64,000 nucleotides of DNA from Schistocephalus solidus (taxonomy: Eukaryota; Platyhelminthes; Cestoda; Diphyllobothriidea; Diphyllobothriidae). Where the stretch lies: positions 1 through 64,000 of the forward strand of contig WEDG01005047.1 of the NCBI GenBank assembly GCA_017591395.1, given 5' to 3'. How positions within the stretch are numbered: the first letter of the stretch is position 1; the number at the start of each line of letters is the position of its first letter. Positions 853 to 26,800 of the stretch are shown here, in pieces. The notes under the pieces were generated by a model. It made no database searches. It saw only the letters and a list, made by a program, of their open reading frames with translations, and was not told the origin of the DNA. Made by a program: the position numbers and the translations under genes.

Positions 853-939
853 GCAGTTTTTTTTCTCCTACCTTCTATTTAAAAAAGAAGGCCTATTGAA
901 CTCTGCTTCCATTTTTAAGGTAGGAGTTTTTTTCACTGC
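853..939 (+). other. LINE 3' UTR hairpin with U-rich internal loop
   Basis: GCAGT (853-857) pairs with ACTGC (935-939). Seven T (858-864) face seven T plus C (927-934). CTCCTACCTT (865-874) then pairs perfectly with AAGGTAGGAG (917-926), closing a 42-nt loop. The same arrangement recurs in four other LINE tails here. Confidence 0.6.
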
Positions 940-945
940 CGATTT

Positions 946-1344
946 TTTCTAGTTTACCATTAATTTCAAAACATCGCTAACTGTTGACATAGCAGGACAA
1001 GTTATGTCTACATTATTAGGTATTTGTACATTTTATCGACACACATTTTCATAACTTTATTTCGTTACTAATGTTTGTTTAGACAGTGCCTTGCCGATGC
1101 TAAACAAATATTAATTCTAAATTTTAAGAGGTCTTGGTCGAGGATTTGAATCGGGTGTTTACAGAGCCTTCCCAATTCTATATGCCTAGAGAATGTGGAT
1201 GTACTCATTGGTCCGAAACTTTTTGGTGAGATCCTCTGCCCCCTTGAACTGATGGGAAAGTTGGCTAGTTTCGAGGCATTAGACAGAATGCCCGTCTCTA
1301 TTGAGCGGAAAGGCCAAATTTTCAGTGAGTTCGTTCGTGCTTAA
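946..1344. other. No gene recognised
   Basis: AT-rich sequence with no coding, RNA or repeat feature that I can support. Confidence 0.5.
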
Positions 1345-1825
1345 AATAATATTAATAATGGTTGTATTTAGTGCCGGTTTACACGCAGTGAAACTCCTGA
1401 GTATACTTCATTATAAGGGTTTTCCGTAACTTTATATTATTCAGGAGAAAAACTGTTGCCTGTGGGATGAAAACATTTCAGATCTGCGAATGGCTAACGT
1501 AGGTGCAATTTGTTTGCAGTCCCTCTGTATTATTTAGGAACCGGGATTCTGCTCCAGACAAGAATGCATCCGTGGACGGTTGCTTATGGTCTGCCAAAGA
1601 AGTAACAGCGGGCAGGTTACAGAGACGGCGCCATCGCCCTCAAGTTAAGACCTAGGATGAGGCTCAGATGCCGCGCACTCCGTGGAACTGGAAAACATAT
1701 TCGACTGTGTCTTACCCAGAATTCTTGGAATTTGTTAAGAATGAAAAAAACTAGTAATATTTTACTTAAATAAAGAATAAATTTCCAGGATTTTTCTATT
1801 CTGGGTTCGTTTGTTCCAGCACCTT
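1345..1825 (-). mobile_element. 5'-truncated LINE tail, same family as the element at 2.9-5.1 kb
   Basis: Read on the minus strand this matches 4640-5130: the WNKLPH-coding stretch, the CCAGAATTCTTGGAA block, the ACCGGGATTCTGC block, the CTCCTGAATA hairpin, and the terminal GCCGG-ATTAAATACAAC. It is therefore a short inverted copy of the last 450-500 bp of that LINE. The right boundary is blurred by divergence. Confidence 0.75.
1385..1455 (-). other. LINE 3' UTR hairpin, second instance
   Basis: On the minus strand: CAGT, four further T, CTCCTGA, loop, TCAGGAG, TTT, CACTGC. It has the same order of parts as 853-939, with a shortened T tract on the 3' side. Confidence 0.5.
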
Positions 1826-2666
1826 ACTCCATGATCCCGAGAAAGGACCAGTGTATATTTAGAAACGATCTTCGTAGCCAGTTTTCATCCCCTCTTGAGT
1901 TCGAACATCATTCGGAAATACTGACGACTCCAATGGTTTCCTTGGTCTTCACGGTTATCCACTTTCTTGGTCATTTGCGAACAGCTACAACCTCGTCTAC
2001 CATTGCATCTGCCACGCCGTAAGGCGATGGTGCTGGCGGTCCTATTCTTCTCCCCAGTGTCCGCCCTACATGTGCTCTTGAGGGTCTTTTCGGGTTCCTC
2101 TGTCGGTAGTCTGAAAAATCAGCAATGCGAGTTTCATGGTCACTTTTCTGGCAGTTCTACCATGACCATCAGGATCGCTACGGTTCTTTCCTCTTTCCAC
2201 CATAAGCGTGAGAAAGATACCTACGACGATTTTTCCTGTCTATCATCCCTGACGATTGCGCTTTTAGCCAGTCAATACGCATTGGGATCACACCTGCGGC
2301 GCTGAAAAGTAGCCTCTGTCATTCCATGATGTCTCGCACGATTGGAAGCGATTTGAACCCTCATACGCTCTCATCAGTAGGTTTGTCCTACATAACGCGT
2401 ATGTTTTTCTCCCAGGAGCGACAGTTAGTTTTTCCTTAAAAAACCCGCAAGCCCCATTAAACATATTCCTTCTTCATAAAAATGCACAAGGAGTTATTTA
2501 TCACTCGCTGCTCTTTTATCTATTTCGTTGATTACGCAGATTTGTGTCATTTGTCATCGTCAATAAGCTTATCTACTATTCATTTCTTAACTGTACATGA
2601 TTTTGCACTCGTTTAGATTTATTATTTTGCCAATGACATTGCCCTCCTGGCTACTGAATGAAGCAC

Positions 2667-2668
<2 letters not shown>
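1826..2668. other. No gene recognised
   Basis: Contains short open frames (for example 1967-2305, 112 codons) without any recognisable domain. I treat these as chance ORFs. Confidence 0.4.

Positions 2669-2740
<72 letters not shown>
2669..2740. repeat. (AT)36 microsatellite
   Basis: 72 bases of uninterrupted AT dinucleotide. Similar tracts occur at 54703, 54981 and 62722. Confidence 0.98.
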
Positions 2741-2743
<3 letters not shown>

Positions 2744-2804
2744 AGTGTGTGGCTCACCGATCTGCTTAAGGAACATTTATGTTCCGTAGTGCCCTGGAAC
2801 TCAG

Positions 2805-2935
2805 ACTAGAGTACTCACAGGCAGTCGCATAGCGACGTGTAGCATATGTTGATAATGTGGAGCCGACAAAGACAAAGGAGACCGAAATGGCTATTTCTGG
2901 CTTATTAGCCGTCATCAGCCAGTGATACCCAGTGA
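2805..2935 (-). repeat. SINE body fragment (tRNA-SINE family S1)
   Basis: Shares CAGTCGCA-AGCGAC, GCCGACAAAGACAA-GGAGAC, ATGGC-ATTTCTGGC and CGTCATCAGCCAGT-ATACCCA with the copies at 30.95-31.13, 34.4-34.6 and 48.0-48.3 kb. The 31-kb copy shows that the sense strand is minus and that a tRNA-like head precedes this body. The LINE at 2915 appears to adjoin or interrupt it. Confidence 0.6.
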
Positions 2936-3493
2936 GCAGGCCAAGAGGCTTACCAAAGAAAAACGCCTAGCCGAAGAGGTCAAATATGTCAAAAACCGTT
3001 CGGTAAATGTAGCAAAACGTTTTTTACACGCAATAAGAACCCATAGTAAATCATGGCATCCCGTACTACTGGACTCCGTTGGAAATCTTGTAGTTGATGA
3101 CAAATTTACGGCTGATGGTTTTAACGTTTTCTTGTCCAGAACATTTATTGAAAATTCGACCGCTCCCCCTCCGCCCATTCAGGTTTGAACCGGTGCCGTC
3201 CTCGAGACCATAACTTTTACCCTCTGGGACGTAACCATAGCCATTCGACGTTTTCGTCAATCTTATAGTCCTGGACCAGATGGCGTACCGATCAGTATAA
3301 TAAAGGCGGATGCTAATGATATTTTCCCATCACTTCTATGTAAGTTATTTAATCTAGCTCTTGAAAGTGAAACCTTTCCCAGTGTATGGAATGAATCGCA
3401 CATTCTACCTATCCCCAAACACGGTCAATCTACGTCATTTGACGATTTCGGCCAATCAACATACTGTCCGCAGCTTCGAAAATCCTGGAGACC

Positions 3494-4303
3494 TTGATCA
3501 AAGATAAGATGATGTATCATTTAATTGAGAATAACCTATTGAGTGCAGCCCAGCATGGGTTCCTCAAAACAAGGTCTTGTGACACATGTCAGATCTCTTT
3601 CTTTGATCATGTTCTACAATCTAGGGATAATGGCTTTGCACTTTACATAGTCTATTTTGATTTCGCCAAGGCCTTCGATCGTGTTGACCATGCCCTTCTT
3701 CTCCTGAAACTCTCCTCTTTCGGTATATGTGGTAAACTTCTGAGCTTGATATCTTCTTACCTGAGCTCTCGTTCACAACATGTTAAGATCTCCAATGGTA
3801 TCTCAAACTCGGCACGTGTGAGGAGTGGAGTTATTCAGGTTAGTGTGCTAGGCCCGCTTTTATTTTGTCTTTTTGTCAATGATGTGCCAGGTTTATTTTG
3901 AAATGGAAGGCCCTTTATTTATGCCGACGTTTTAAAATTTGCCTATCGATACAAGCCGGCAGATCGCGACACCATGCTTGATCTATTAAAAAATGATCTC
4001 GAGGCCTTTGCCCAGTGGTGCTGCACATGGCACCTTTCCCTTTCTTGGCACAAATGTTCCGTTATGGTTGTCGGTGACAACCATCAGCCTCATCTAAGCA
4101 TAGTTGGTCACGATATAAATGAACCTGGCGTTGTTAAGGACCAGGGCATATCATACTCCAACGGTCTCAATCTTTCAGAGCATTGCGCCCTGATTGTCTC
4201 CAAAGCACACAGAACTGCCTGGTTTATCCTCCGAAATTTTAAAACTATTGATATAAGACTCCGCCTTTATAAAATGTACGTTAGGCCTGGCCTAGAATAC
4301 TGA
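3494..4303 (+). pseudogene. LINE reverse transcriptase core, inactivated
   Basis: RT palm of the family A LINE. Motif A reads DFAKAFDRV with its Asp present. The catalytic YADD reads YADV (GACGTT at about 3927-3932), losing the second Asp. A stop follows NDVPGLF at 3899-3901 and another follows GLEY at 4302-4304. Such a protein could not synthesise cDNA. The Asp-to-Val change could be a late neutral mutation after insertion. Confidence 0.85.
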
Positions 4304-4998
4304 TCGTTTCTATTAAACCTTCTGCGCGCTAGCGAACGGAAGAAAATAGAATCGGTCCAGCACTTATTCACGAAAAGAATTTTATCGTTGGAGCACCGTA
4401 ATCTGTCGTATCAAGAACGCTGTGGGCTTGTAAACATTGATCCCTTATGGTTTAGCCGAGTGCAGAAGGGACTCTTTTTGCGGTTTAAGCTTTTGAATAT
4501 TCGTACATTTAATCCCCTTACCACTGTGCGGCAGCTTGACCGTCCTCGGCGCAGCAGTCGTCGCAATGTCTATTTTCTTCCATTAGCTCACACAGTTAAG
4601 TATAGTCAGTTCTTTTTGGTAAATACCATAGCCAGGTGGAATAAACTTCCCCATAATATAAAAATCCAGCAGAGTTATTCTTTGTTTAAGATAACTATAA
4701 CTAGTTTTTTTAATTCAGAACAGTTTCCAAGAATTCTGGGCACCGAAACGGTAGAATCTGTTTTCCTGTTCGACGGAGTGCGCGGCATCTGAACCCGAGC
4801 CCAGGTGTTACCTTAAGGGATACGGCATCGTCTCTGCAGCCTGCACCCGTTGAATTCTTCGGCAGACAGTGAGCAACCGTACACGGATGCTTTCTTGCCT
4901 GGGGCAGAATCCCGGTTCCTAGCAAAGACAGAGAGACTGCATACAGACTGCAATTGAGTTAGCCCTTCCATGGTCTGAATTGCTATCATTCTTACAGG

Positions 4999-5080
4999 TG
5001 GCAGTTTTTTCTCCTGAATAACATTAAGATAGGAAAAATATTTATAATGATATATATTCAGGAGCTTTTTTTCCCGGCCA
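4999..5080 (+). other. LINE 3' UTR hairpin, third instance
   Basis: CTCCTGAATA (5011-5020) pairs perfectly with TATTCAGGAG (5055-5064). It is flanked by six T on the left (5005-5010) and C plus seven T on the right (5066-5072). Outside these, TGGC (4999-5002) can pair with GCCA (5077-5080). Base pairs differ from the 853-939 copy while pairing is kept. Confidence 0.6.
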
Positions 5081-5135
5081 GCCTCTACCCACTGAATATT
5101 TCATCTGACAATGCCTGTAAACCGGCATTAAATAC

Positions 5136-6565: not shown

Positions 6566-6656
6566 AGTTTTCTTTAACTTTTTTATTTTATTTTATTTAT
6601 TTATTGCCAGTTTACAGGCAAGGTCAAAAAAATATATACAGTAGAGGGTCAAGCTG

Positions 6657-6710
6657 ACAGTGAAAAAAACTCCTCATAGTTGTTTCATGTGTTTTCAGGA
6701 GAAAAAACTG
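6657..6710 (-). other. LINE 3' UTR hairpin, fourth instance
   Basis: Minus strand: CAGT, T tract, CTCCT, 22-nt loop, AGGAG, seven T, CACTG. Only the five-pair core is kept in the upper stem. Confidence 0.45.
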
Positions 6711-7719: not shown

Positions 7720-8503
7720 TTAAGAGCTCAAGCACGATGTTGCGATCAATCGGTTATATCGATAGGCAACTTTTAAATCGTCTGCGTACAGAAAGGGCCT
7801 ATCATACTGAAAACAATCAGGAACATCGTTGACAAAGAGGCCAAAAAGAAGTGGGCCAAGCACGCTACCCACGATCAAAGGCCTTAGTGAAATCGAAGTA
7901 AACGGTGTAAATTGCAAAACCGCTGTCTTTAGATTGTAGCACATGATCGAAGAAACAGAGCTGGCAAGTGTCACAAGACCTTTTTTCGAGAAAACCATGC
8001 TGAGCCGCATTAAGTAGGTTATTCTCTCTTAGGTGACACATCAGCTTGTCTTTGATCAAGGTCTCGAAGATCTTCGAGACTGCTGGTAGTGTATTTATTG
8101 GCCTTAAGTCGTCAAATGACGTAGGTCGGCCGTGTTTCGGAATAGGCATTATGTGTGATTCCTTCCATACAATAGGGAAAGTTTCACTTTCAAGAGCAAT
8201 ATTAAATATCTTATACAGAAGGGACGGAAAAATATCGTTTGCATCCACCTTTAAAACGCTGACCGGGACGCCATCTGGTCCTGGACTGTATGATTGACGA
8301 AAACGCCAAATGGCTACGGTCACGTCCCAGAGGGTAAAAGTTATGGTTTCGAGGACGTTACCTGTCAAAACCCGGATGTTAGGAAAGGGGGCGACAGTAT
8401 GTTCACTAAACGTTCTAGACAAGAAAGCATTGAAGCTTTCAGCTGTCAACTTAGCGTCAGCTATTGGGTTTCCTAAGGCGTCTCGAAGTACGGGCTGCTG
8501 CAT
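7720..8503 (-). pseudogene. LINE reverse transcriptase with internal deletion
   Basis: The catalytic YADD is intact (FLYADDLK). About 154 bp relative to family A is missing at about 7866, between motif A (DFTKAFDR) and SVLGPLL, removing roughly 50 residues and shifting the frame so that a stop follows at once. The junction has a few bases of microhomology (GTG/GGT). The copy cannot make a working RT. Confidence 0.8.
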
Positions 8504-8655
8504 TTTTCTCTGCGCTTTTACTGTGCGCGAAAAGAGCTTTGCAACATTTAACGAAGGGTTTTCGGCAAAGGTAACCTCATCGGCTTGTCGTTTTTCGTCA
8601 GACAGCCTCTTAGCCTTAAGAATGGCACCATGCTTATTAAATATTTGGCTGTGAC

Positions 8656-9616
8656 AATATTTTAGTGTACTTCCTTAGCAAAAGGTGGCTCTTCAAAATA
8701 CATGAACGTTTGGAAACCTGATGAGCGTTTCATACTGTCTGTGTTAACATTTACCTCGTTTACTGGTTGTCTCTTATACAAAGAATTGGCTCGTGATTTC
8801 GATTTGTTTATTTCAGATTTATTGGTATTCCTTTGACCATATCTGACTTAAAGGCTGAACATTCCTTACTCTGAGGATTCCACACCAATGTTGCTGTTCC
8901 TTGAAAGCGGAGAAGTTTTCACATTATTGATATCTGACATAGGCACTCCCAACTCTCCTTTTTATATCCGATGTCACCCACTCGGGTGTGGAGATGCAAA
9001 ATCACCTTTTAAGCGAACAGGAGTTCTCGATAATATGCTGAAGCAAAGTCTAAAATAAGAACCAGACAGCGTTTGGGTCAGGTACATGCCCATTTTTCCA
9101 GCCTAGCTCATTCAATATTAGGTTTATTTCGCTGTATTCCATTTTCCATACATTTATTTCCCTTATTTATTGAATTTCGGTTGCAAAAAATGACTGTTTT
9201 GTCAAACAAGAACGCAATGATCACTTCAGCCACAGGGCATGTGAGAAACTAGGCCAAGGATACATTTTTCATGCCACAAACATGGACATTTTTACGCGTC
9301 CCAGTTATTTTGTGGTGGCAGAAAAGAAGTAAAACAAAAAGATGGTATTCTTGGATGACTAAAACATCGTAAGATTATCCTACACTATAAAAATCCAAAA
9401 AAGTTTTCTCCACCGCTGTTTTCTAATCCAAAAAGCGTTTCATATTTCAGTATGCAGATATTTATGTTGATCTTTTTCAAAAGAGGAAAGTTGCAAACGT
9501 GCGAATCATACCGTTTAACTCAACCTCACAGGCAATATTTATTAGGTTGTGGACATTGTGTAGCACGTTGTCCCAGTCGTACAAGGTTGCGAATTTGGGG
9601 TCTGAAGTATCGGCAT
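8656..9616. other. No gene recognised
   Basis: AT-rich, no supported feature. Confidence 0.4.
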
Positions 9617-10110
9617 TTATTTATTGATTGCCAGTTTACAGGCAAGGTTAAAAAATATATACATAAGAGGGTCAACCTGACAGTAAAAAAACTCCTGATC
9701 GTTGGTTCAGGTGTTTTTAGGAGAAAAAGCTGCAGCTTATTGAGTAATTGAAGTTCAGGACAGGAAAGCGTTGACACAGGTGCCCGGTGAAGAACTTCTC
9801 CATTCAGTGTTATGGATCCGGTATTCTGCACCAGCAGGTATGTCGGTGAGCGACTGTTCGCTGTCCACTGAGAATTAAGCTGATTGAGGTATGCAGAGCC
9901 AGCCATATTTCCCTCAGACTGAAGTCCGGCATATGCTTCAGAGTCCGCGAACGCAATAAGAATGGAATAGAGCTTCCAAAGAGTCAGCACGCAAAAGATT
10001 TGGAAGGTGTCCTGAATGTAAAAAAATAGTGACAGCTCTCGTAAACAAAGGATAGCTTTGCTGAATTTTAATACTTTTGGATATTTTATTCCAGATTTGC
10101 TTACCATTAC
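9617..10110 (-). mobile_element. 5'-truncated LINE tail, family B second copy
   Basis: Near copy of 6590-7080: the same GTTGACACAGGTGCCCGGTG, ATTCTGCACCAGCAGGTATG and ACTGTTCGCTGTC-ACTGAGA blocks, and the same terminus. Contains only the last coding residues and the 3' UTR, ending at GGCAATCAATAAATAAATG. The matching hairpin lies at 9680-9732. Confidence 0.85.
9680..9732 (-). other. LINE 3' UTR hairpin, fifth instance
   Basis: Minus strand: CAGC, five T, CTCCT, 22-nt loop, AGGAG, seven T, ACTG. It has the same order as the other four. Confidence 0.45.
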
Positions 10111-11550: not shown

Positions 11551-11620
11551 TTTTTCAGATCTTTATTAACCTTTGTGCTGCATTTATAGAAAATCGTTTC
11601 CTCAACTGAAGTCGTCAGAA

Positions 11621-11894
11621 ATGGACGGAAATTTAAATGACGGCCACAGGCCTATTTATAAAGTCGACCGACTGACATTCTCTGATCCCGAATTTTGCGA
11701 CGAATATGAAATTCTTCCAAAAAGGCAGATCACTTTCTCAAGCTTGAGAGATTCGTGCTTAAAACTTCGCCTTAAAAATTTTGGCTTCGCTATCTGTCCA
11801 GCGTTCACTTCTCTGTGTTCATTTTATAAGCTGAACGACTTCCTTTTGGACGTTGTGAGTGGAATAACTATGGCTATATTTCATATACCCCAAG
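11621..11894 (+). CDS. SLC26-like exon 1 (N-terminus and first membrane helix)
   Basis: Codes residues 1-91 plus one base. It holds a hydrophilic cytosolic N-terminus with acidic patches, then the [21 protein letters not shown] segment that opens the SulP membrane domain. It ends in phase 1 at CAAG/GTAAAT. Upstream, a T-rich AG at 11551-11558 could be a cis or spliced-leader acceptor. This is only a suggestion. Confidence 0.9.
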
Positions 11895-14800
11895 GTAAAT
11901 TCTTTCTAAATCTTACAATTTTAGGAATGGCCTATGGCAGTTTGGCCGGGTTGAGCCCAGTCAATGGATTATATACCTCATTTTTTCCTGTTCTGATTTA
12001 CATCCTTTTCGGAACATCACGACATATATCTGTTGGTAATTTTTATACTTACTTCAAACGAATTTGTTGCAAATGTTTATTTACTTTATTTAAACGTAAG
12101 AGTAATTGCCCATATACAACCTGATAAGGATTCGTAGGATGCGAGCTTTGAACGTATAGATAAAGCAAAAATGAAACGTTTGAAAATTCATTAGTTTCAC
12201 GTAGGTATCAAGCTCAGACGTTGAGCTTTAGTTGCAGCCGCTACCATTTTCTAACATAGGTTGATCATTTTCTTCGGGTATTTTAATTGACAAGTAAGCA
12301 TGCAACCGTGCAAGTATATTTGTTATTGAGACGCTATTTTTACAAGCCTAACTTCAAGGAATGAGATATTTTTCAGTCATGGAGGCAAGACTTTAGTCAT
12401 ACCCAATAAAATGGCTATGAAATAATTTACGGATATTGAATTACAGATTCCAAAACTGTTTGACCAATAGGCTTGTTTTAGTTCGTCTTTAAAGGCTTTC
12501 GTTCGAAGTGATAATAACCATTTTGATGTCTTTCGAGAAAGCACCATACAGAAAAGCTAAATAGATGGTTGGTTTTAAGTAGAAAGAAACTGATAATACT
12601 AGAAAATGACGTAAAAATCGGCTAACGAGCACACAGCAGAGACGGTTTTGCTTAAAATATATTGGAGTAAGTGACATCGCCATTGGAATCAGTGTTGCTG
12701 ACTGGTCATAAACCGCCAATTACAAATCGCGAGGTTTGCTGATTCTGGAAGTGCCTGTAGTTACCAGGCTCCTCAGCAACCTGCATTAAAATTTGTACTG
12801 CTCCACGAATGCGGAACAGCCTTGTGTTTGCTAATGAAGTTGGAAGGTTAATGTGCCTTAACCTTTTTATGTTCGGGGATTACTCCAGGTTTGGCGTTGC
12901 TGCTGAGGCAGCTAGGCGGCGCCGTCTCTAAAGGCAAACCATCTTACTTTACCTGCGACCAAATAAAAAGCAGACGTGCGTAAGAAACTACTGTGGACCC
13001 TTATAAGGGAAAAAACGCCGTGCATTTTAAGTATTGGGCGTAATAGTCTTTCTAAAGATTGGCATCATTAATCTGGAGCCTACGGGTTTGCCTAAAATTG
13101 CGTTATTTTTATGGCAATTTTGCTCCTCGAATTGACTTACACTTTTAAAATAACTTTCCGTCTCAATCGCAACCTCGAAGACCCAATTTAAGCATACATT
13201 AAAAATATTAACTTTAAGTTCAACCCCGGGTCTTTTGCTTACCATTCGCCTCGCTGCCTCAATTTCTGTTATCATGATAACAAAAGTATAGCTCAATCTT
13301 AAATTGGTTTAAACAACGCTTTTTATTGATATTTAAGGCACGTTCTCCTTATCATCATTGCTATTTTCCTCACCGGTGAATCGGCTTGCAAGCGGTTTCA
13401 ACCAACACGAAAATATTACGAATCGAGCATTTTCTGAGGAGGAAACCACTTTTCGTCTCCAAGTCGCCATTACGCTTACGCTGTCCATTGGCCTAGTTCA
13501 GGTTTGTCCTTGTTCTCTTAGGCTTTTTGGTCACTGAAATTCAGGGACTCTAACCTCTGTTCTGTCTTTCTTGGATCACGTTGTTTTCATATTTGAAATT
13601 AACCTGAGGACAGCTAGGATTTCCTTCAGTAGCTCTCCTCTTCAACGCCTATGTAACTTTTCAATAATCAAACATATACATTTGAATTACGTTTAACTAG
13701 GCGTTTGCCTTGTCTGTGATTTAAAATTATTGGATTTTAGTTGACAATGGGTCTTCTTCAGTTGGGGTTTCTCGTCACCTATCTCTCAGGACCTCTTATC
13801 AGCGGATTACATGTGCCTCGGCATTTCATATACTCGCAAGTCAGATGAGTGGTCTTTTCGGGGTCAATGTACCCAGTTACTACGGTCCTGGAAACTTAGT
13901 AATGGTAAGTTCGTTGACTGTAAACTTTCGTCTTGTTTCTTGCGGTGTTGGATTAAGCTAACTCTTTTGTTATCATGGGCGCATATGGCCCCTCCACCAT
14001 GTTAGAAACCATTGCGAATAGCCCATTTTTCCGAGTTTAGCAAAAATATTGCCTGAAAGATGTCGCGGACTTTGTGCGGAAGCTCACTGCTTTGCTAAAA
14101 GTACCACATGCAATTACATTGTGATAGTATTGTTGACCAAGTAGGGACAGTTGTTTACGAAAATTGAAAATGGCCGTGCAAATTAAATTCAAAAATTGTA
14201 AAGTGTTTAGCTAGGTTTACTTAACTTGGAATGCTTTTGTTGCCATCTCACGTATGTGAGGCCCGTGGCCATCATTGCATTGAGGAGCATCCACCTATAA
14301 TAGAAGTGGAAACTATGGTCTATAAGGTATACTGACACAGTACTTGGTGACTAGATCGTGTGTGGTACACGTAGATGACTTGTTTCCGCTCCGCCTGCCA
14401 ATGCTTTCAATCCCTACACCAGACAACTGACAGGCTCACGGCAGAAGAAGATGAGAAATAGAGAGGCGGTCACTGTTGAATCCATCCTCACTGCAAATCA
14501 ATGCATTCTTTTCTAGAATAAAACTGCGCTGTAATCTACCATGACGCGGTAAAAGTCATGACCTGGAATGTTGCCAAGTAACGATATGGCTAGGTGGCCT
14601 GACGGGAGGACTGAGAGTCACACTCAATAACGTCTTTCTGGCAGGGATCGAACAGTGTGTGGCACGCGTATCTTGAACCGTTTAGCTTTGTCAGCCGCTG
14701 CGTCAAAACGCACCTCCGGTTGTCATCAGAGCTTGATGGTGGGTGAGGAAGGAGAAACAACAGTAGGTGCTGCCTTACTTAAAACTAATTTAAAGTTATT

Positions 14801-17800
14801 CGTTCTATACCTACCCCGTGGGGTATACTGTGGTCACCTTCGCGCGTGATTGTCAAACTATCACTTAGTTCCAAGCAGTTGTCTCATACTCCTTCTGTAG
14901 AAACAGCTTTCAAGACCTTATGAAGTTAAAAACGTAATGTCCCTTCTTTAGGCGGTGGATAAAAGATGGCAAAACTAGTGATATCGGCATGAAAGATCAG
15001 TGCATCTTGATACATCGACATTCGATCCCTCAGGCCTGCACCAGGACATCTATCTACCTCTATGTTGTTCGTGTACTGCTTCTAGTACAGTGGATTGCCC
15101 ATCTCATGAAATCTCAACCGAAAGTCATAAATGCTGTTTTCGATTCGAACAAATTACTTAAGTAGGCTTGTAATATTGATTATCAGGCATTTTAATCCCA
15201 AGATATTTCAATCAAGGCAGTATGTCGGCGTTTAAAAGAACTTTTTTCTGATCACCTGTAGAATGCGAACTCTGTAATAATTACTACTTATGTCGTTTAT
15301 CGAGTTTCGATACCCTTAGAAGTTCACATTTGTTTTAGAGGAAGTAGCAAAAATATTCTTTTATATACTTGTGTGATAGCTAATTACACCTTCTGCAGAT
15401 GTCATGCGTCAAGAAGGGATGAGTTTCAATTTAAACAAATTTCGAGATTTTTAAATAAGCATGAATCCTACCGGCCATTTCACATGCATTCTAGCTTTCC
15501 AAATTACGTGCTGTATACATTCTCTCTAGGGAAGATCACACATTTCTCTACGCTCTAAAGAAGAGGTCACGTAGTCCTCATAAAATGTTGCACTGCGTTC
15601 TGCTTTGATCTCCTTGTTTTTATCACGTCTCACATTCGACGTTTTATAGGAAACATCAAAAATTAAAAGAAACGATAGTTCGACTGTCGATTTCGATGAG
15701 GTCCAACGTACGCTCCACAGAAGATTGGTGCAGCTACGGTGACTTGCGCGTGATTTAGTTTAAAGTGATAGTAGACTTGCGCTGCATTTACCGCACTCTC
15801 TCCTCCTTCCCCATCTATGCCCGGTATCAAGACAAAGTCAAGAAGACCGGAGATGGGAGATGGGAGAGGGCGCAGGTGACTAGCGCGGTCAGGGCCCCTA
15901 GGCACTAGACGCTCCTAGGCGTGCCACCACACCCCCCACCCATGTTGGGCATTCGTTATGGGAGCGCAACTCGAATAACGCCTGTCGTGCCCTGCTGTGG
16001 CCCGAGTGCTGGTCCAACGCATCTACCACGTGGCCCGTTTAGGGGCACAAATACAACATACAATGTACAATGAATGAACATTTTACGCTCGTAAAAATAT
16101 CGTAATTATAATTTTTTTGAAAAACTGACAGCTACCCTTTCTTAATGCATTAAATCTGAAGAAAACATAACTTTTCATCTCACGAGTATAAGAAAGAGTA
16201 TTTTTTGCATATTTTCTATAAGATATCTTTAAATTTATGAGAGCATGTGAAAGAGGCATACGACATATCTAGTCATTTTTCACAGAGTATGCATTCTACA
16301 GGTGATCAGAAAGAAGCTCGTTCAAAAACCGACACCGTTATGTGTCTGAAATGTCTATAATAACTATAACAACTCAATATAAGCAATTTGTCTCAGTCGA
16401 AAACCTATTTAAGAATTTCCTTTGACGTTTCATGACATAGGATATCGCCTGTATGCTCCACTGTTTCTGGTGATAAAACAATGGATTCGTCACTCTGCCA
16501 CATTTAACCGACGATGTTCGGGTTTCGGATGTTCAGATGCTCTTAGTTTCTGTGCGTTTTCCACGAAAAACTCCATCAACCCTCAAATACTCGATGGTTA
16601 ACTTTAATCCCGATTTTCGGCAAGCAGTTTTCGCTTTTTAAATCATACTGGGAAGGATACGTACGAACAGATCAGTAAAATGAGTAAACCACTGTACTTT
16701 ATTTACAGAGGAGTAATCCTAATTTATTGGAATTAACACACCACAGTGAGTCTGTAAGTGAAGCAGACCAGCCTAACACAAAGCGAACATCGAAAGGTAA
16801 AAGAAGAACACCTCAAAAGCGATTTGAACTTAGAGATTTCATAGTGATAATTGAACTTTGTTCCTGTGAAGAGCTAAGTGGAATTTTTGTTAATCGGCAA
16901 TCTCAGCTGTGGCTTTTATCCTTTAGTCACATCACGTGGATGGCGAGGTAGGGGCTGCTCGACGTGTCCTTCTCTTATTCCCTTGTCTTCATCACACCTC
17001 ACGTTATCTTATTTCCACCTCCTTCTTACGACAGAAACTTTTTAGGTGTGATCTAGTCTGGACCGAGCAGCAAATCGAGCTGATGAGTCGTCCCATAGAC
17101 GGAGCAGAGCATATGTACGCTACCCAGGCATCAATCTTCGTTCCATCTAACACGTATAATTCTGGGGCAGCCATCGTGCTTAGTTGCAAGTCGTTGCTGC
17201 GCGGGATTCATTTTGGAGAGTGATCAGTTTTTAATGTTCTTCTAGTATATCAAAGGGAAAGCTTTTACTGACCCTGTGATGGAAAAAATGCATCTCATAT
17301 TTAGGGTTTCCCCTGGCAAGCGTTATCCATTATTTGCTTCCGGTAAAATTGCATAAACCTGGTGAGCGAAGCGTGAAAGTAGTTAATTGAAATTGTTCAT
17401 ATTTTCCATCTAAGCACTGCATTACACGCGTATTAGCGGAAACAGAGACCTGATACAGCACGACGATTAGCTGCTCAGGAGAGAACATTTATGGTCCACG
17501 GCAGTACTGTTAAACTGGTGGCAACAGCCTTTCTGTTACATCCACCACTGCCACAACCATCAACATCACCACGAGCGATGGGGGCTCGGTCCTAAACTGT
17601 CCTAATTGCGACTGCACCTTCACCTCACGCATCGGCCTGGTCAGTCACTTGTGAATCTATCCCACAGAGGCTGGTGAACCAGTGCCTGGAGCACCAACAC
17701 ACAGCAGAAATCGCTGCATCCAATGTCCTCACTGCACTCGAGCCTTAACGAACCGTAGGGGCCTATTCAGTCACATGCGCATCCATGGCAGCGGACTTCA

Positions 17801-20800
17801 CTGCAATGTCGACAACACTGATACCCCATGAACGCCCTCTCTCCTGCAAATCTCACCGCCACCGCCACCTCACTACCACTAACGAAAACCCCACATAACT
17901 TTCTGATTTCTCCTGCCCACACTGCGCCCACAACCTCACCTCACGCATCGGCCTGGCCGGTTACCTGCGAATCTATCACACGAAGACTGGCGAACCAGTG
18001 CCTGGGGCTCCAATATACAGTCACCGCGCCCGCCACCACTGCGCTCACTGCTCCCGCATCTTTGCACACTGCATGGACCTATTAGGTCACATGCGGCTCC
18101 ACGATAACATGTGGTAAACACCGTAGGCTAAAAATCAACAGCGCCAACTACCTCCACCAATACATTCACAACAGCCTAACCACCACATTGTACTAGAGGA
18201 TATCCCGGTTTCCTAGAAATCATGGCTTTGACTGCTGCCAATCTGACGCTAACAACAAACCATGCCGTCGGCCCAGTGTGTGTTGTGCGTTTAATGGCTG
18301 GCCAGTGGACTGGGAGTCAGACGGCGATGGCTCACCCAAATTCCCCGGTTTAGTGAATCCTGGTGTGTGGGTTTGTGTAAGAGGTGCCAAGTCGTGCCAT
18401 TGCGCGTGGCTCGTCAGCCAATGCGCCCACTCCCATATCAGACAACTGACCAGCTCGGACGGTGGACTGATTGTGGGGGTGGGTGCTCAGCGCATTTTTG
18501 CCTCACTCTAAAAACTCTGACGCCCCTTAAACTATCACGCTGCGCTTAAGGCGTGGCTTGGAAGGTTGCCAACTGACGGGATAGCTTTGACTGCGTGGTC
18601 ATCCCACGGGTGTTCGTCGAAAAGGGGGTCAAGTACGACGCTATAAGGAAACACTGAAGACTTCCCTGAAGCACCTGCAGATCAACCCGGCGACATGGGA
18701 GGACCTCGCCCGGATCCCAGCTACTTGGAGAAGAACAGTGAAGACAGGGGCAGCAATCTACGAAGCCAACAGAATCGCCACCGCCAAGACCAAAGGATCG
18801 GAATGAAAGTGACCAGCGCCCCGGACCAACAACGCCAATGCCCAGGCCCTTCCAACATGCCCACGCTTTCAACGAACCTTCCATGCGCGAATCGGCCTAG
18901 TCGGACATCTTCGGACGCAATGCACCAGCAATCCGACAATTCCAAATTCTACGTCAAATTCTGCCCACCCTCCTTCAGAATCCCCCTCCCTCACTCGTGG
19001 CATCAATTCCATTACTCCTACCATCCTAGAAACCACATCGCATTACTCATCGCCTGTTACCCCCACCACCGACACCACCGCCACCAACATCAGCGATGGC
19101 GACTCTTCCCTAAACTGCCTTCATTGCGACCGCACATTCACCTCACGCATCGGCCTGGTCGGTCACTTGCGAATCCACCGTACAGAGACTGGTTAACCAG
19201 TGCCTGGAGCATCAACACACAGCAGAGATCGCCGTCTCCAATTCCTTCACTGTCCTCGTGCATTCCTTCATCGCATGGGCCTACTCGGTTACATTCGCAT
19301 CCATGGCAACCTGCGGTATACCACCGGAGGATAAGGCACATCAGCGCACACTACCTACAAAAATACATAGACAACACCCTCACCATTAGCATTTACACGT
19401 GAATATCACGGTTTCCTAGAAATATTGGCTTGGAAGGTTGCTAATCTGACGCTTACACCAGACCACGTCGTCAGCTCAGTGTATGTGCTGTGTGTAACGA
19501 GTGGCTGACCAGTGGACTAGGAGTCAGACGGCGATGGCTCCTCCATATCCCCTGAGTAAGTGAATCCTGGTATGTGCGTTATGGGGGCAAGGTCGTGCTG
19601 TGGCGCGCGAAGATGGGTACGCCTACCCGTCAGCCAATGCGCCCACTCCCACATCGGACGACTAACTGGCTCGGACGGTGATCTGATTGTGGGGGTGAGG
19701 GAGAGAGTGAGGTCGACAGGTCAGCGTATTTTCCTCACTATAAACAATCTGACGCGCTTGAAACTATCACGGGCGTTAAAAACCATGGATTGGAAGGTTG
19801 CCAACTGATGGGAACACTCGGATCGCGTGGTCAGCCCAATGTGGGTTTAGTGTGGAGTGGCTGACTGGCAGACTGAGCGTCATGCTGCAATGGCTCCTTC
19901 TTAATGTGGCCTATATGGCATTCCCACACCGTGGGATCCGAGCCAGGTGTGGTGGTACGCCAAGGGGCATCTCCGGCCGCGCCAGCCACCTACGCCCTCT
20001 CCCAACTCCGGTCTTCCTGACTATGTCATGACACTGGGCTCAGGTGGGGGAGGAGAGAGTGCGGTAACGATAAGCACCGCGGTTGGAAGGTTGCCAACTG
20101 ACAATTACACTCAGACCTAGCAGTTAGTCCAATTTGTGTTGTGTGGAGTGGCTGACTGGTGGTCTGAGAGTCAGGCTGCGATGGTTCCTTCTTAACGTGA
20201 CCTCTGGCTATCTCACACATGTGATATGTAAGCTGTTTAACCCCCTGTTGTTTAAAATTCTGGTGTTCGTGTTTGGGGTACCAGGTCGTGTACGTAGTAC
20301 AAATAGACGAGGTCACCAGCAGCTGCGCCCATTTCCGCATCAGACAACTGACCGGATCGGACAGTGGTTTCACTGTGGGGTGGGGGAGAGAGTGAGGTCG
20401 ACGGCTCAGCGCATGTTACTTACTATAAACAATCTGACGCGCCTGAAATTATTACGGTGCGCTAAAAGCCGTGGCTTGGAAGGTTACCAACTGACGGGAT
20501 AACTTGGACCACGTGGTCAGCCAAATGTGTGTTTTGTGTGAAGTGGCTGACTTGCGGACTGAGAGTCAGGCTGCAATAGCTCCTTCTTAATGTGGCCTTT
20601 ATGGCAGTCCCAATCAGTTGCCATCCCGAATACAACTTATAACATCCTCACAGCCTCTCCTAATTTCTCATGCTCACACTGCGCCCACAACTTCAACTCA
20701 CGCATCGGCCTGGTCGGTGAACCTGTGAATCCATCGCACGGAGGTTGGTGAACCAGTGCCTGTGGCTCCGACATATAGTTGACGCGCCCGCCTCCAGTGC

Positions 20801-23800
20801 CCTCACTGCTCCCGAACCTGTAACACCGCATGGGCCTATTAGGCCACATACACCTTCACGAAAACCTGCGGTAAACTACCGGAGGCTAAGCTACATCAGC
20901 GCACAATACCTACACCAATACAAAGACCACACGCTCACCATCACCACGTACCTGAGCATATCATGGTTTCCTAGAAACCGTAGCTTGGAAGGCTGCCAAT
21001 CTGACGCTTACACCGGTTCACGCCATCGGCCCAGTGTATGTGCTTTGTGTGTCGAGGGGTTGACCAGTGGACTGGGAGTCAGAAGGCAATGGCTCCTCTT
21101 AATCCCCCTGATTTAGTGAATCCTGGTGTGTGAGTAATAGGGGCCAGGTCGTCCTGTGGTGCACGAAGACAGGTATTCCGCACCGTCAGTCAATGCGCCC
21201 ACTTCCACATCAGACAACTGACCGACTCGGACGGTGGTCTGATTGTGGGGGTGGGGGAGAGAGTAAGGTCGACCGCTCAGCGCATTTTTCTGACTTAAAT
21301 CAAGCTGATGCGCTTAAAACTATCACGGTGCGCTAAAAGCCGAGGCTTGGAAGGTTGCCAACTGACGGGAAAACTTGGACCGCGTGACCAGCCTAATATG
21401 TGTTTTGTGTGTAGTGGTTGGCTGGCGGACTGAGAGTCAGGCTGCAATGGCTCCTTCTTAATGTGGCCTTTATGGCACTTTCACTCCGTGAGATCCGAGT
21501 TAGGTGTGGTGGTACTCCTAGGGGGCTCCGGCCGCGCCAGTCACCTGTGCCCACTCTCGCCACCGGTTTTCTTGACTCTGTCATGACACCGGGCTCAGGT
21601 GGGGGTGTAGGAGAGAGTGCGTTAGATTCAGCGCAAGTATATTCTCACTTTAACCTAAATCAAGCGCAAGTCATCCTCAGTGCACCACTCTTCCTTGGAG
21701 CAAACGGTGGGCACCGTCGGACTACGACGGTTGAACTGTCGGGGTGAATGGTGTACTACTTAGGGGTAGCACCACACAGATAGCATTTGGTCGCTCCATT
21801 TGTCTCCTATATGTTGTAAATACTCCTGTGGCTGCCTCTAATTTTTACCCAACTCTCACCTGTGGCTACTCGAAGCTGGGTTCTTCCCAGTGACCACACC
21901 CCAGGCAACCGTCAAGACCGGCGGGCTAAACCTGGTAAGGGTCTCCTGTGCTGTGTTTGCCTCCACACCATTTTTGTCTGACTCCTGAAATTTCCAATCT
22001 GCCAGTGTCAAAAAGTCCTACGGTGGGCGTGTCAGTAATCCCGTAGGTGGCTCAGGATAACTTGGGTAGCTCTCCTACTAAAAAAACTGTGACCAATATT
22101 AGAGTCCGGCAGCCGTCTGGGATGCCCCAGCAGCCCTATTTAGGGTCAGCACTGATTGCCTTCTCGCGAAGGAAGGGGCTGGAACAGGTGCCCTTGGTAT
22201 CACGTCTGCTGCAGCCGGCCGCGGTCGTTCAACTCAAACAAACAAAAATACCACTGCCCCATCACCCACGCCATAAACGCCGTTCGGGTGAATACGATCG
22301 CACTAGCAGCTTGGAATGTTAGTTCCTTTTAGACAATCCGAGTTGCAACCAGCTGGAACGGAGCACGGCGCTTGTCACTCTGGAACTGGCGCGCTACAAA
22401 GTGGACATTGCTGCTCTCATAGAAACCCGATTCCCTGAACAGGGTCAGATGGAGGAGGTGGGTGCCGGCTACACCTTCTTCTGGAGCGGCCGCCCAAAGG
22501 CAGAGCGAAGTGACACTGGTGTAACCTTTGGCATCCTGAACGCATTGTAGGACGTTTGCCCTGTCTATCGCAGAGTATCAGTGATCACATGATGAGCCTC
22601 TGCCTGCATCTACGGGAATCCAAGTTCTCCATAATTATCAGAGCCTACGCCGCCCCCTCCCCAACGTTGAGCTCTGATTCGACGAATAGCAAAATATACG
22701 AGGACCTACATGCCCTCCTGGTGACCGTGCCGAAGGGTCGTAGGTTGATCGTCCTTGGTGACTTCAACGCCCGCATCGGGACAGACCACGCTGCCTGGCA
22801 GGTAGTGCTGGGTCCGCACATTCTTGGTAGCTGTAACGATAACGGTCTTCTTCTTCTGCGAACCTGTGCGGAACACCGTCTCCTGCTGACCAACACCTTT
22901 CGTCTTCCGACGCGAGAGAAGTCCACATGGATGCAACCTTGGTTGCGGCGCTGGCGGCTGCTAGACTATGTTCTCGTCTGGAGACGAGTTCGACAGGACG
23001 TGCTGGCGAACAAGGCGATCCACGATGCCGATGGTTGGACAGATCACCGTCTCGTCCTCTCCAAGATGAGCCTCCGACTTCAACCCCGACGAAGGCCCCA
23101 AAGGTAAGCGACCGCCAGATAAGTTTAGTACTGTTTTGTTGAATGTGCCTGCTCATTGTTTTGATTTCAGCAACGAAATACCCCAGAAACCGGAGGACCT
23201 GCATGCTCCAGGTGATAACGCCACCGTGGAGACACAATGGTGTCAAATGCGGAACGTCATCCAGCCCACCGCCCTCCAATTACTCGGATGCGCACGCCGT
23301 TAACACCAGGACTGGTTTGACGACAATGACACCGACATCAGAAACCTACTCGTAGAGAAGAATGGACTAAACAAAGCCTACACGGACCTTCGGACTGACG
23401 CCACCAAACCAGCCTTCTTCAGATGCCGGCAACTTGTACAACTATGGCTGGGGAAGATGCAGGACACCTGGATGGTCCGAAAAGCTGAGATAATCCAAAG
23501 GTATGCAGACCACAAGGAAATGAAAAACTTTTTAAAATACATCAAGGCCATCTACGGCCTCTGTATCAAAGGAACCGATGTGCTGCTCAGCTCTGAAGAT
23601 ACAACACTTCTGACGGCGAAATCCTAAATTCTGAGTACAAGGCCAAGCACTTCAGAAGTGTCCTTCATTGCTAATCAGCCATCTCTGATGCTACCGTTGA
23701 CCGTGGGCACGAACAATGACCTGAATCTCCTGCCTTACCTACCAGAAACCATCAGGAAATATGGCACCAATGACAAGTTCCACAAGATTTCAAAGATGCG

Positions 23801-26800
23801 ACTATCATCCTTGTCTACAAGCGGAAGTGTAACCGACAACTCTGTGATAACCAAAGAAGCAACTCGTTGCTCAACCTCGCCGCCAATATCTTCGCCCGTA
23901 TCCTTTCTTATCGTCTGAACGGTCACCAAGAGCAGGTTATGCTCCTTGAAAGCCAATATGGCTTCCGAAGAATCTGCGGAACAACCGACATGATTTTGGC
24001 CACTAGCTAGCTACAAGAAAAGTGCCAGGAGATGTTAAGATATCTCTACACTACCTTCGTGGGTCTGACGTAAGCCTTTGACACGGTCAATCGTGATGGA
24101 CTTTGGAAATTCATGCAGAAATTTGGCTCTCCTGAGCTGTTCACGCACATGGTGCGTCAGCTTCATGACGGGATGTCGGCTCGCGTCACTGACAACGGAA
24201 CGGTACCCGAAGCATTCACAGTGACTAAAGGAGTGAAGCAGGGCTGCGTACTGGCCCCCACCTTCTTCAGTCTCATGTTCTCTGCTATGCTGATGGACAC
24301 CAACCGTGATGAGCGCCCTGGGATCCGAATCGCCTACAGAACTGACGGGCACCTTCTCAACAGTTGGCAAACGCGTGTGTCTACTACTACAGTCCGTGAC
24401 TTGCTTTTCTCGGACGAATGCACTGTTGACACTGTGACGGCGGAGGAAATGCAAAGGAGTATGGACCTCTTCGTCGCAGGCTAAGCCAATTTTGGTCATG
24501 CACCAACCGCCACCCAGCGCGGATACAATGTTCCACGAATCATTGTCAACGGCGCTCAACTCAAAATTTGGAAACTGTTGCTCATCTGTCGAAATCGGTG
24601 TCACGAATCATGAGAATCGACGACGAGGTAGCTCAACCGATCTCCAAACCCAGTCAGGCCTTCGTCCGGCTGCAGGTCTCCGTGTGGAATCGCCATGGTA
24701 TTCACCTGAACACCAAAATGAAGATGTACAAGGCCTTCGTCTTGATGACACTCCTTTATGGAGCGGAAACCTGGACTGTCTACTCGAACCAAGCCAGGAA
24801 GCTGGATCACTTCCATATCAGCTGCCTCCGCAAAATACTGGACCTGAACAGGCAAAACAGGATCCGGGACACGGAAGTCCTGGAGCGGAACGGAATCTTC
24901 AGCATCCACGTCATGCTGTGACCAGTGCAACTGCGATGGAGCGGCCACCTGGTGAGAATGGTCAACGAATGACTACCCAAACGAATTTTCTACGGAGAGG
25001 TCGCTACGGAGGCTTGCCGACAGCGAGGTCAAAAACAACGCTTCAAGAACACGTTAAAGAAATCTCTGAAAAAACTGCAAATCAACCCGGCGACCTGGGA
25101 GGACCTCACCCAGGATAGACCGGCATGGAAAAGATCAGCAATCTATGAGGCCAACCAGATCGCCGCTGCTAAGGTCAAAAGGGTGGCTCACAAGTCACAA
25201 GCACCGCGGATCAACACCGCCAATGCCCAAGTCCTGCCAACGTGTCCACGCTGTCAACGCACATTTTCCGCGTGAATCGGCCTGTTCGAACATCTTCGAA
25301 CTCAATGCAACAACAATCCCACAACATCAAATACTGCCACACCTGCCTCAGACCCCATAGCGACGACGACCACCCCAAACACTGTTAAACACTCCATCGA
25401 TGCCCCGCTATCCACGATTACCGATCTCATCCTCCCTCCCCATCCGTTACGCCGATAACGGCGATGAACACCACTTGTCCAACTCCCGCAACCTCAGTGG
25501 CTACATCTAACTGCCTGCCACCTGCTACCTTTAACACCACCACTGCCCCCTGTACCAACGATGGGGACCTGGTACTAACCTGGTCTCATTACGATCGCAT
25601 ATTCATCTCACACATCAGGCTGGTCGGGCACTTGCAAATACATCGCACAGAGACTGGCAAACTAGTGCGTGGAACACCAACACACAGCAGAGGCCACCGC
25701 CTTCAATGCCCTCACTGTCCCCGCGCATTCACTTAACGCATGTACCTAATCGGTCACATGCGCATTCACGAAAGCGGAATCCACCGCGATGCCAGCACCT
25801 CTTGCGCACCCATCAACACTTCCTCCCAGGAGCTCTATTACCAGTTCCAGCAGCAGAGCCCCGCAGACTCAGCACCTACCGACCTATCTTGTCCTCAATG
25901 TCACTGCACATGCACATCGCGCATCAGCCTTGTCGATCACTTGCGAATCCATTGCACAGAGACCGACGAATCAGTGCCTGGAGCACCAAACTACACGCGC
26001 CGCACCTGACTCAAATGTCTGCACTGCCCACGCACATTCACACATCGCATGGGCCTATAAGGTCACCTCCATCTCCATAAAACCTGCGGTAGAACACTAT
26101 CGACTATACCAAAAAAATACTTATCTCCTCATCAGTCTCTGCACCTCACATGATCGCACGCAACTCCATAAAAAACATGCTCTTAGTCTGCATAACTGAA
26201 TGAGAGGCAAGTGTGATACTGGGCTACTTCTTTATGTGGCTCCACTGCTGCATATGTGATCTGATCTGGAGAATATCACGGGACCTCGCAGTCAGTCCAA
26301 TGTTGTTGTGTGGAGTGGCTGACCGGTGGTCTGAGAGTCAGGCTGCCATGGCTCCTTAACGTGACCTCTGGCCAACTCACTCATGTAAGATGTGAGCCGT
26401 TCAACCCCTGTTGTGTGAAATTTTGGTGTTTTTGTTTTTTTTTTGGTGGGGGGGGGCAGGTCGCATCAGCTAACTGACAGACTCGGACGGTGGTGTGATT
26501 GTGGGCAGTGGGAGAAGAGTGGGGTCAACGGATCTGCGCGTTTTCCTCACTAACCAATCTGAGGCGCTTGAAACTATCACGGTGCGCTAAGAGCCGTGGC
26601 TTAGAAATTTGCCAATTGAATGAAAAATCGGACCGCATGGTCAGTCCAATGTGTGTTTTGTGTGTAGTTTCTGACTGGCAGACTGAGAGTCAGGCTGTAA
26701 TGGCTTCTTCTTAATGTGGCCTTTATGGCACTCGCACTCCATGGGATCCGAGCCAGGTGTGGTGGTACACCCATGGGTGGCTCCGACCGCGCCAGCCATC

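What the first reader, a model, noticed from the sequence alone, without database searches (positions are those of the whole stretch)
853..5080. ENE-like hairpins with U-rich internal loops conserved in LINE 3' UTRs
Five LINE tails (853-939 and 4999-5080 on +; 1385-1455, 6657-6710 and 9680-9732 on -) share one layout: CAGT, a T tract, CTCCT..., loop, ...AGGAG, a second T tract, then ACTG. Two copies have 10-bp perfect upper stems with different inner pairs (CTCCTACCTT/AAGGTAGGAG versus CTCCTGAATA/TATTCAGGAG), so pairing is kept while sequence changes. Two facing U tracts between short GC-rich stems is the architecture of ENE elements, which clamp a poly(A) tail in a U-A-U triple helix and stabilise RNA. 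ENEs are known in some viral, lncRNA and plant/fungal transposon RNAs. I do not know of one in flatworm LINEs. A simpler reading is a 3' recognition hairpin for the LINE RT. The flanking stem is weak in the 5-kb copy.
Basis: partly seen in the sequence, partly recalled or inferred. Interest (0 to 1): 0.78.

Follow-up and report, generated by a model that had tools for sequence, protein, structure and literature searches.

The report
U-flanked hairpin in tapeworm LINE tails
Four families of jumping genes in a tapeworm genome carry the same RNA hairpin with two facing runs of U near their 3' ends, built like known RNA clamps that grip a poly(A) tail and protect a message from decay, though gripping itself has not been tested.

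Summary
In detail: all five copies lie where stated. The window's own genome was searchable (603.7 Mb); the RT's named relatives are diphyllobothriidean tapeworms. The exact short-loop motif occurs 1,229 times there against 0 for the reversed control, and 0 times in prokaryote and viral contigs. Family majorities (31-40 copies each of A, B, D) are cleaner than window copies: the weak stem at 4999 is decay of one copy. A fourth LINE family, F, carries the hairpin too. For A/B, A/D, A/F and B/F nothing outside the hairpin is alike; B and D are related, D/F is borderline. Lower-stem extensions differ in sequence but pair in B, D and F, not in A. A PAS-like hexamer lies 50-168 nt downstream in all four. 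This is ENE architecture. Triplex, polyadenylation and stabilisation are untested, and the strongly conserved core letters leave protein recognition open. Best reading: an ENE-like poly(A)-tail clamp in animal non-LTR retrotransposons (0.55); a real, selected RNA element (about 0.93).

The parts
853..939 (+). Family A ENE-like hairpin (whole)
857..864 (+). A: 5' U tract (T8; first T pairs in the lower stem; family majority T7)
   Evidence: sequence
865..874 (+). A: upper stem 5' arm CTCCTACCTT
917..926 (+). A: upper stem 3' arm AAGGTAGGAG
927..933 (+). A: 3' U tract (T7), followed by C and ACTGC
   Evidence: sequence
4999..5080 (+). Family B ENE-like hairpin; 3' lower-stem side decayed in this copy (CCCGGCC against family CACTGCC)
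5005..5010 (+). B: 5' U tract (T6; first T pairs in the lower stem)
5011..5020 (+). B: upper stem 5' arm CTCCTGAATA
5055..5064 (+). B: upper stem 3' arm TATTCAGGAG
5065..5072 (+). B: 3' U tract (C then T7 here; T8 in the family majority)
5112..5132 (+). B: separate terminal hairpin TGCC..GGCA and ATTAAA hexamer; family members end in (ATT)n just beyond
1385..1455 (-). Diverged B-like copy (C) of the hairpin, U5/U3
6657..6710 (-). Family D hairpin (short loop)
6605..6620 (-). D: terminal hairpin TGCCTGTAAACTGGCA next to the AATAAATAAA tail
9680..9732 (-). Family D, diverged copy (E): CAGC, and no C before ACTG
9629..9644 (-). E: terminal hairpin, same letters as D
   Evidence: sequence
3443..3901 (+). 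RT fragment of the family B LINE upstream of its hairpin
   Evidence: RVT_1, 4.8e-16, above the curated cut-off
4304..4792 (+). ORF fragment after the RT of the family B LINE
   Evidence: no Pfam family, assigned by position and by DNA similarity to the D element
7865..8674 (-). RT ORF fragment of the family D LINE
   Evidence: RVT_1 3.6e-5, below the curated cut-off

Best explanation
The hairpin is an ENE-like element in the 3' UTR of CR1/Jockey-like LINEs (clade name recalled from the look of the protein, not tested). Shown here: a retained hairpin with a lower stem (CAGU/ACUG plus family-specific extension, with a one-nucleotide 3'-side bulge in B, D and F), an internal loop of 5-6 U (7 in the window copy of A) facing 7-8 U plus C, and an upper stem closed by C-G (CUCC/GGAG), lying 50-168 nt upstream of a PAS-like hexamer. 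Inferred: once the LINE mRNA is polyadenylated, the tail folds back into the internal loop, one U tract pairs with it Watson-Crick and the other Hoogsteen (U-A-U triples). This would hide the tail from deadenylases, keep the RNA alive longer and raise the chance of retrotransposition, as reported for Evade in Arabidopsis. Reverse transcription would start separately at the family-specific terminal structure and repeat.
For: Folds of family sequences: A, B and F have the ENE layout as MFE with closing C-G probability of at least 0.995; D has it within 0.5 kcal/mol (probability 0.30) (A was typed there with one U more than the majority). In A/B, A/D, A/F and B/F the parts up- and downstream of the hairpin score below the 95th percentile of shuffles while the whole scores above it; B/D are related outside it and D/F is borderline. 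Lower-stem extensions pair in B, D and F better than random genomic flanks (P 0.003, 0.005, 0.001; sum over all four reached 1 time in 20,000). Upper extensions of A and B differ at 4 of 5 pairs and pair in both. Substitutions in fetched copies, summed over A, B and D: U tracts 14 of 1,501 sites, loops 198 of 4,302, downstream 380 of 7,601. Copies 1,229 against control 0. PAS-like hexamer downstream in 4 of 4 families. Precedent: an ENE in the 3' UTR of the Evade LTR retrotransposon prevents deadenylation and raises mobility (PMC12501189: abstract, section 5 and passages).
Against: No poly(A)-binding data. B and F insertions end in (ATT)n and (ATACTG)n, not poly(A); polyadenylation is only inferred from hexamers, for which I ran no chance control (13 hexamers in AT-rich DNA). 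U tracts are unequal and a C follows the 3' tract. D's consensus slightly prefers another fold; A's lower extension is no better than chance (P 0.34). Core letters are conserved more than a structural clamp needs, and two patterns for other cores found no further family. No Rfam match. The substitution contrast is uneven: in B, U tracts (5 of 434) are hardly below the downstream part (41 of 2,108); AGGAG in A (6.0%) is as variable as its loop (5.8%), CTCCT in D is 3.1% and ACTG in B 4.8%. Copies were the best-scoring 40 per search, so rates are ascertained by similarity. The hairpin tracts also vary in length (A 5': 7 in 29, 6 in 8, 5 in 3; B 3': 8 in 24, 7 in 6, 6 in 1), and a T tract outside the hairpin in D keeps its length in 35 of 36. 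In copies with a mutated 5' upper arm (listing, by eye) the 3' arm is mostly unchanged, so no compensation shows within families; covariation rests on four lineages, two of them related. Some cross-family flank pairs also score (B5'/D3' 14, F5'/D3' 11).
Confidence: 0.55

Rival explanations
1. The hairpin is a recognition site for the LINE's own proteins (ORF2p reverse transcriptase or ORF1p), used for cis-preference or to position target-primed reverse transcription; the U tracts are single-stranded contacts.
For: Primary sequence of stems and U tracts is alike between families, as a protein site would be; the hairpin sits in LINE 3' UTRs; no family with a different core was found.
Against: It lies 50-168 nt upstream of the PAS-like hexamer and not at the terminus, at family-specific distances; B, D and F have a separate short hairpin beside the tail repeat, a better candidate. 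Families with the same hairpin have unlike tails: (ATT)n, AATAAA-rich, (ATACTG)n.
Confidence: 0.25
2. The hairpin binds a host RNA-binding protein that likes U or CU tracts (PTB-, HuR/ELAV- or La-like; recalled), acting on export, translation or decay, without a triple helix.
For: U6-8 followed by CUCC is a pyrimidine tract of the kind such proteins bind (recalled); conserved letters.
Against: A linear pyrimidine tract would not need two facing tracts with a paired stem on each side, nor paired family-specific stem extensions.
Confidence: 0.13
3. The motif is a byproduct of shared ancestry or homopolymer drift with no function.
For: Listed copies within a family are 93-98% identical, so within-family agreement is ancestry. 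Tract lengths vary somewhat, and a T tract outside the hairpin in D is as stable in length.
Against: In A/B, A/D, A/F and B/F the rest of the 3' region is not alignable while the hairpin is kept. Summed over families U tracts vary less than loops. In A a T tract downstream ranges from 4 to 7 while the hairpin's 3' tract is 7 in 39 of 40.
Confidence: 0.04

Closest known systems
Single ENE of the KSHV PAN RNA (element for nuclear expression)
   Different: Here the carrier is an animal non-LTR retrotransposon, not a viral non-coding RNA; U tracts are unequal with a trailing C; no binding data. No sequence comparison was made.
ENE of the Evade (Copia93) LTR retrotransposon of Arabidopsis
   Same: Retrotransposon 3' UTR, U-rich tracts flanked by pairing stems with G-C pairs beside the tracts (PMC12501189, section 5).
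   Different: Evade has four U-rich tracts; it is a plant LTR element; its triplex and effect on mobility are measured.
ENEs and double ENEs of plant and fungal transposon RNAs (Tycowski et al. 2016)
   Same: Transposon-borne U-rich internal loops. The paper is not held; known to me through citing papers.
   Different: A citing paper gives around 200 motifs, most from plants and fungi, strongly associated with LTR retrotransposons; here animal LINEs with one loop.
MALAT1 3' triple helix
   Same: U-rich internal loop that takes up an A-rich tract (PMC11411715, passages).
   Different: There the A-rich tract is part of the RNA's own 3' end; here the likely partner is an added poly(A) tail (only D's own tail is A-rich).
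3' terminal stem-loop of LINEs of the UnaL2/L2 kind (recalled)
   Same: Conserved stem-loop in a LINE 3' UTR.
   Different: That one is at the very 3' end; here a separate terminal hairpin takes that place in B, D and F.

Membership tests
ENE | Hairpin whose internal loop has U-rich tracts on both strands | tested here: met
   Family sequences of A, B, F by MFE; D within 0.5 kcal/mol; tract lengths
ENE | G-C pairs directly beside the U tracts | tested here: inconclusive
   Upper stem closed by C-G in 4 of 4 families; lower stem closed by U-A followed by G-C (or G-C directly, if that U belongs to the loop)
ENE | Lies in the 3' part of the RNA upstream of the poly(A) tail | tested here: inconclusive
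   3' UTR, 50, 53, 127 and 168 nt upstream of a PAS-like hexamer; polyadenylation itself not observed
ENE | Forms U-A-U triple helix with poly(A) | not testable with these tools
   Needs melting or gel shift with oligo(A)
[quoted passage not shown]
   Needs reporter or transcript half-life
ENE | Match to a curated ENE covariance model | not tested
   Rfam 15: no hit at gathering over the window, and at E<=10 on two stretches only hits far below gathering, none an ENE; I did not establish that Rfam holds a general ENE family
LINE 3' RT-recognition stem-loop | Located at the extreme 3' end beside the tail repeat | tested here: not met
   The hairpin ends about 50 nt or more before the PAS-like hexamer; another structure sits beside the tail in B, D and F
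LINE 3' RT-recognition stem-loop | Required by the RT and shared with partner SINEs | not tested
   No SINE search was made
CR1/Jockey-like LINE (host element) | Reverse transcriptase and AP endonuclease ORF of that clade | tested here: inconclusive
   RVT_1 in a B fragment above and a D fragment below the curated cut-off; endonuclease- and RT-C-terminus-like ORFs upstream of one F copy read by eye only; A's ORF end read by eye; no tree was built

The most novel reading that the evidence does not exclude
A single-loop ENE is a standard, long-kept module of animal non-LTR retrotransposons: at least four tapeworm LINE families use it to lock a poly(A) tail for RNA stability, while reverse transcription starts at an unrelated terminal structure, so message protection and template recognition are two separate 3' modules, with the clamp either inherited under constraint or passed between LINEs.
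Probability: 0.45. Interest if true: 0.75.

Novelty: new variant of a known kind. Interest (0 to 1): 0.6.

Why it matters
In the papers I could read, ENEs are described in viral RNAs, long non-coding RNAs and transposons of plants and fungi. An ENE-type clamp in animal LINEs would mean that selfish RNAs in animals too fight deadenylation with RNA structure, and it would separate two jobs of a LINE 3' UTR: keeping the message and being recognised as template. The motif is short and defined, so the triplex can be tested in a tube and the effect in a reporter.

Tried and rejected
Viral contigs searched with a looser motif gave 5 stretches; none of the 5 is followed by ACTG and three are one sequence, so taken as chance. 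RT protein in viral contigs: 9 pattern matches, none a relative. Rfam: nothing at gathering over the window; at E<=10 on two stretches 10 hits each, all far below gathering. Pattern for upper stems with an early purine inside CAGT/CACTG: 100 matches, control 1; by eye they are mutated D or F copies, one A-like (C6051), one B-like (C3118), and five others (C4524, C5884, C6115 twice, C6675) without a convincing stem. Pattern for A or C before a five-U tract: 40 matches, control 0, by eye all D or F variants, the window's own E copy among them. So no fifth family by these two routes; both cover a limited range of loops and 3' U tracts, and long-loop relatives of A and B were not scanned that way. 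The tail as translated protein in other tapeworms: 2 candidates, none scoring. MAFFT misaligned the arms of raw copies, so I used no pair-counting tool, built no covariance model and have no R-scape-like statistic. Literature on ENEs in transposons, flatworms or other animals; no ENE in an animal LINE was seen in their listings, but one search was blunt (its short term matches any word beginning with those letters), one search returned nothing, and most subscription papers are not held.
Full report
What was checked. The five tails were read out at the given coordinates and recovered by a pattern scan of the window. A stricter structural descriptor found 1 hit in the window and none in 60 Markov shuffles of it. 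Single copies fold with modest z-scores, -2.87 (A), -2.33 (B), -2.16 (C), -1.13 (D) and -1.66 (E); E's MFE is not the proposed hairpin.

Where it comes from. The RT fragment at 7865-8674 has 16 relatives at E <= 0.001; 14 carry a name and all 14 are Dibothriocephalus latus, Sparganum proliferum or Schistocephalus solidus. The window is therefore most likely from a diphyllobothriidean tapeworm. The assembly itself is held without a name: 603.7 Mb, 8,019 contigs.

Family-level picture. DNA searches scored and listed 40 of 1,348 (A), 40 of 2,136 (B) and 40 of 1,418 (D) candidates. From the loci in hand I aligned 36-40 A copies, 31 B copies and 36-39 D copies. The majorities are: A GCAGU U6 CUCCUACCUU ... 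AAGGUAGGAG U7 C ACUGC; B AGGC-GGCAGU U5 CUCCUGAAUA ... UAUUCAGGAG U8 C ACUGCC-A-GCCU (the C before GGCAGU is a T in nearly half of the copies); D AAGCUG-CAGU U5 CUCCUGA ... UCAGGAG U7 C ACUG-U-CAGCUU. The U after CAG is counted in the stem.

A fourth family. A pattern with a freer upper stem (100 matches, reversed control 1) showed, beside mutated D copies, a shorter form. Eight copies with flanks define family F: AAGGGC-GACAGU U5-6 CUCCUAAAUAUCACCGGGAG U7-8 C ACUGUC-U-GCUCUU, in a 3' region ending in (ATACTG)n. Seven of the eight align throughout; the eighth (L101) aligns only from the hairpin on. Upstream of one copy there are endonuclease-like and RT-C-terminus-like ORFs by eye; a second locus is unclear. 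The exact short-loop motif with U7 on the 3' side occurs 1,229 times (613 forward, 616 reverse) with 0 control matches; those listed (the first places only) are D or F forms by eye. It has 0 matches in genome contigs and viral contigs, which are prokaryotic and viral and so only a rough background.

Is pairing kept? (i) Folds: A, B and F give the ENE layout as MFE, -30.0, -25.9 and -18.6 kcal/mol, closing-pair probability 0.997, 0.996 and 0.995; the lower stem has 5, 10 and 12 pairs. D (lower stem 11 pairs) prefers another hairpin, which uses the 3' U tract, by 0.5 kcal/mol; probability of the ENE closing pair 0.303. (ii) Lower stems beyond CAGU/ACUG: scores B 15, D 14, F 17, A 3; random genomic flanks reach these with P 0.00285, 0.0054, 0.00125 and 0.336; the sum was reached once in 20,000. 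This test was framed after seeing the stems, and some cross-family pairs also score (B5'/D3' 14, F5'/D3' 11, B5'/F3' 9, D5'/B3' 9). (iii) Upper stems beyond CUCCU/AGGAG: A and B pair at all 5 positions and differ at 4 of them on both sides; D adds 2 pairs, F none, and F has U-G for U-A at the fifth pair. (iv) Outside the hairpin, local alignment scores of A/B, A/D, A/F and B/F lie below the 95th percentile of shuffles; B/D remain alike (36 upstream and 43 downstream against 22) and D/F reaches 23 against 21 downstream, which may be the lower stem's own 3' side. (v) Substitutions in fetched copies, summed: U tracts 14 of 1,501, loops 198 of 4,302, downstream 380 of 7,601. The contrast is clear in D (1 of 507 against 47 of 858 in the loop) and A (8 of 560 against 120 of 2,080), weak in B (5 of 434 against 31 of 1,364), and some stem parts are as variable as loops (AGGAG in A 12 of 200, CTCCT in D 6 of 195, ACTG in B 6 of 124). 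Copies were chosen by similarity, so this is suggestive only.

Two 3' modules. Downstream of the hairpin each family majority has one place with PAS-like hexamers, close to its end: B ATTAAA at +50 (AATACA at +54), D AATAAA at +53 and +61, F AATATA at +127 abutting the repeat, A AATATA at +168 (TATAAA at +170) (the list of 13 hexamers is recalled, no chance control was run). B and D end with TGCC-loop-GGCA beside (ATT)n or an AATAAA-rich tail; F has AGGTG-ACT-CACCT before (ATACTG)n. The distance from hairpin to end differs between families. That fits an element that reaches a tail from any distance better than a terminal RT signal, and makes the terminal structures the better RT-recognition candidates.

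Comparison with ENEs. ENEs are described as hairpins with a long internal loop, both strands mostly U, which take up poly(A) in a major-groove triplex and shield the 3' end (PMC8704770, passages; PMC11411715, passages). In Evade, U tracts and the adjoining G-C pairs are needed for the triplex, and deletion lowers RNA stability and transposition (PMC12501189: abstract, section 5 and passages). That paper says around 200 motifs were found, most from plants and fungi and strongly associated with LTR retrotransposons; a 2026 review likewise names plant and fungal transposon RNAs (PMC12846552, passages). Tycowski et al. 2016 is not held. So the layout works like an ENE on paper; membership is not established because the defining interaction was not tested.

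What speaks against. The core letters are nearly invariant, and neither pattern for other cores found a new family, so sequence-specific protein binding remains live. The loop is unequal with a C after the 3' tract. Only D shows an A-rich tail of its own. D is ambiguous by energy and A has no significant lower extension. The covariation rests on four lineages, two of them related.

Verdict. A real, selected RNA hairpin module of tapeworm LINE 3' UTRs (about 0.93). Most likely an ENE-like poly(A) clamp (0.55), with protein recognition as the main rival.

Noticed in passing
L011 and L067: In two loci a family D LINE lies inside a family A tail close to the same spot (beside GACAAGTTAT...CATTATT), either a copied composite or a target preference of D.
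   Followed up: no
1391-1818 (-) and 4637-5067 (+): Two family B tails (77% identical) face each other in inverted orientation about 2.8 kb apart.
   Followed up: no
2670-2740: Long (AT)n microsatellite inside the LINE-rich stretch.
   Followed up: no
22295-30197 and 39690-42427: Related repeats, some inverted; the first holds an Exo_endo_phos fragment at its cut-off and an RVT_1 fragment below its cut-off, so probably other LINE copies; the hairpin descriptor found nothing there.
   Followed up: partly
11570-12124: ORF with a sulfate permease match, PF00916 at 3.9e-17, probably an exon of an SLC26-like gene.
   Followed up: no
15086-27000, 43113-43614, 53745-54197: Partly repeated segments in many copies, possibly a satellite-like or composite repeat.
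   Followed up: no
63049-63504: ORF that looks to me like a Penelope-type GIY-YIG C-terminus (recalled resemblance; Pfam gave no match).
   Followed up: no
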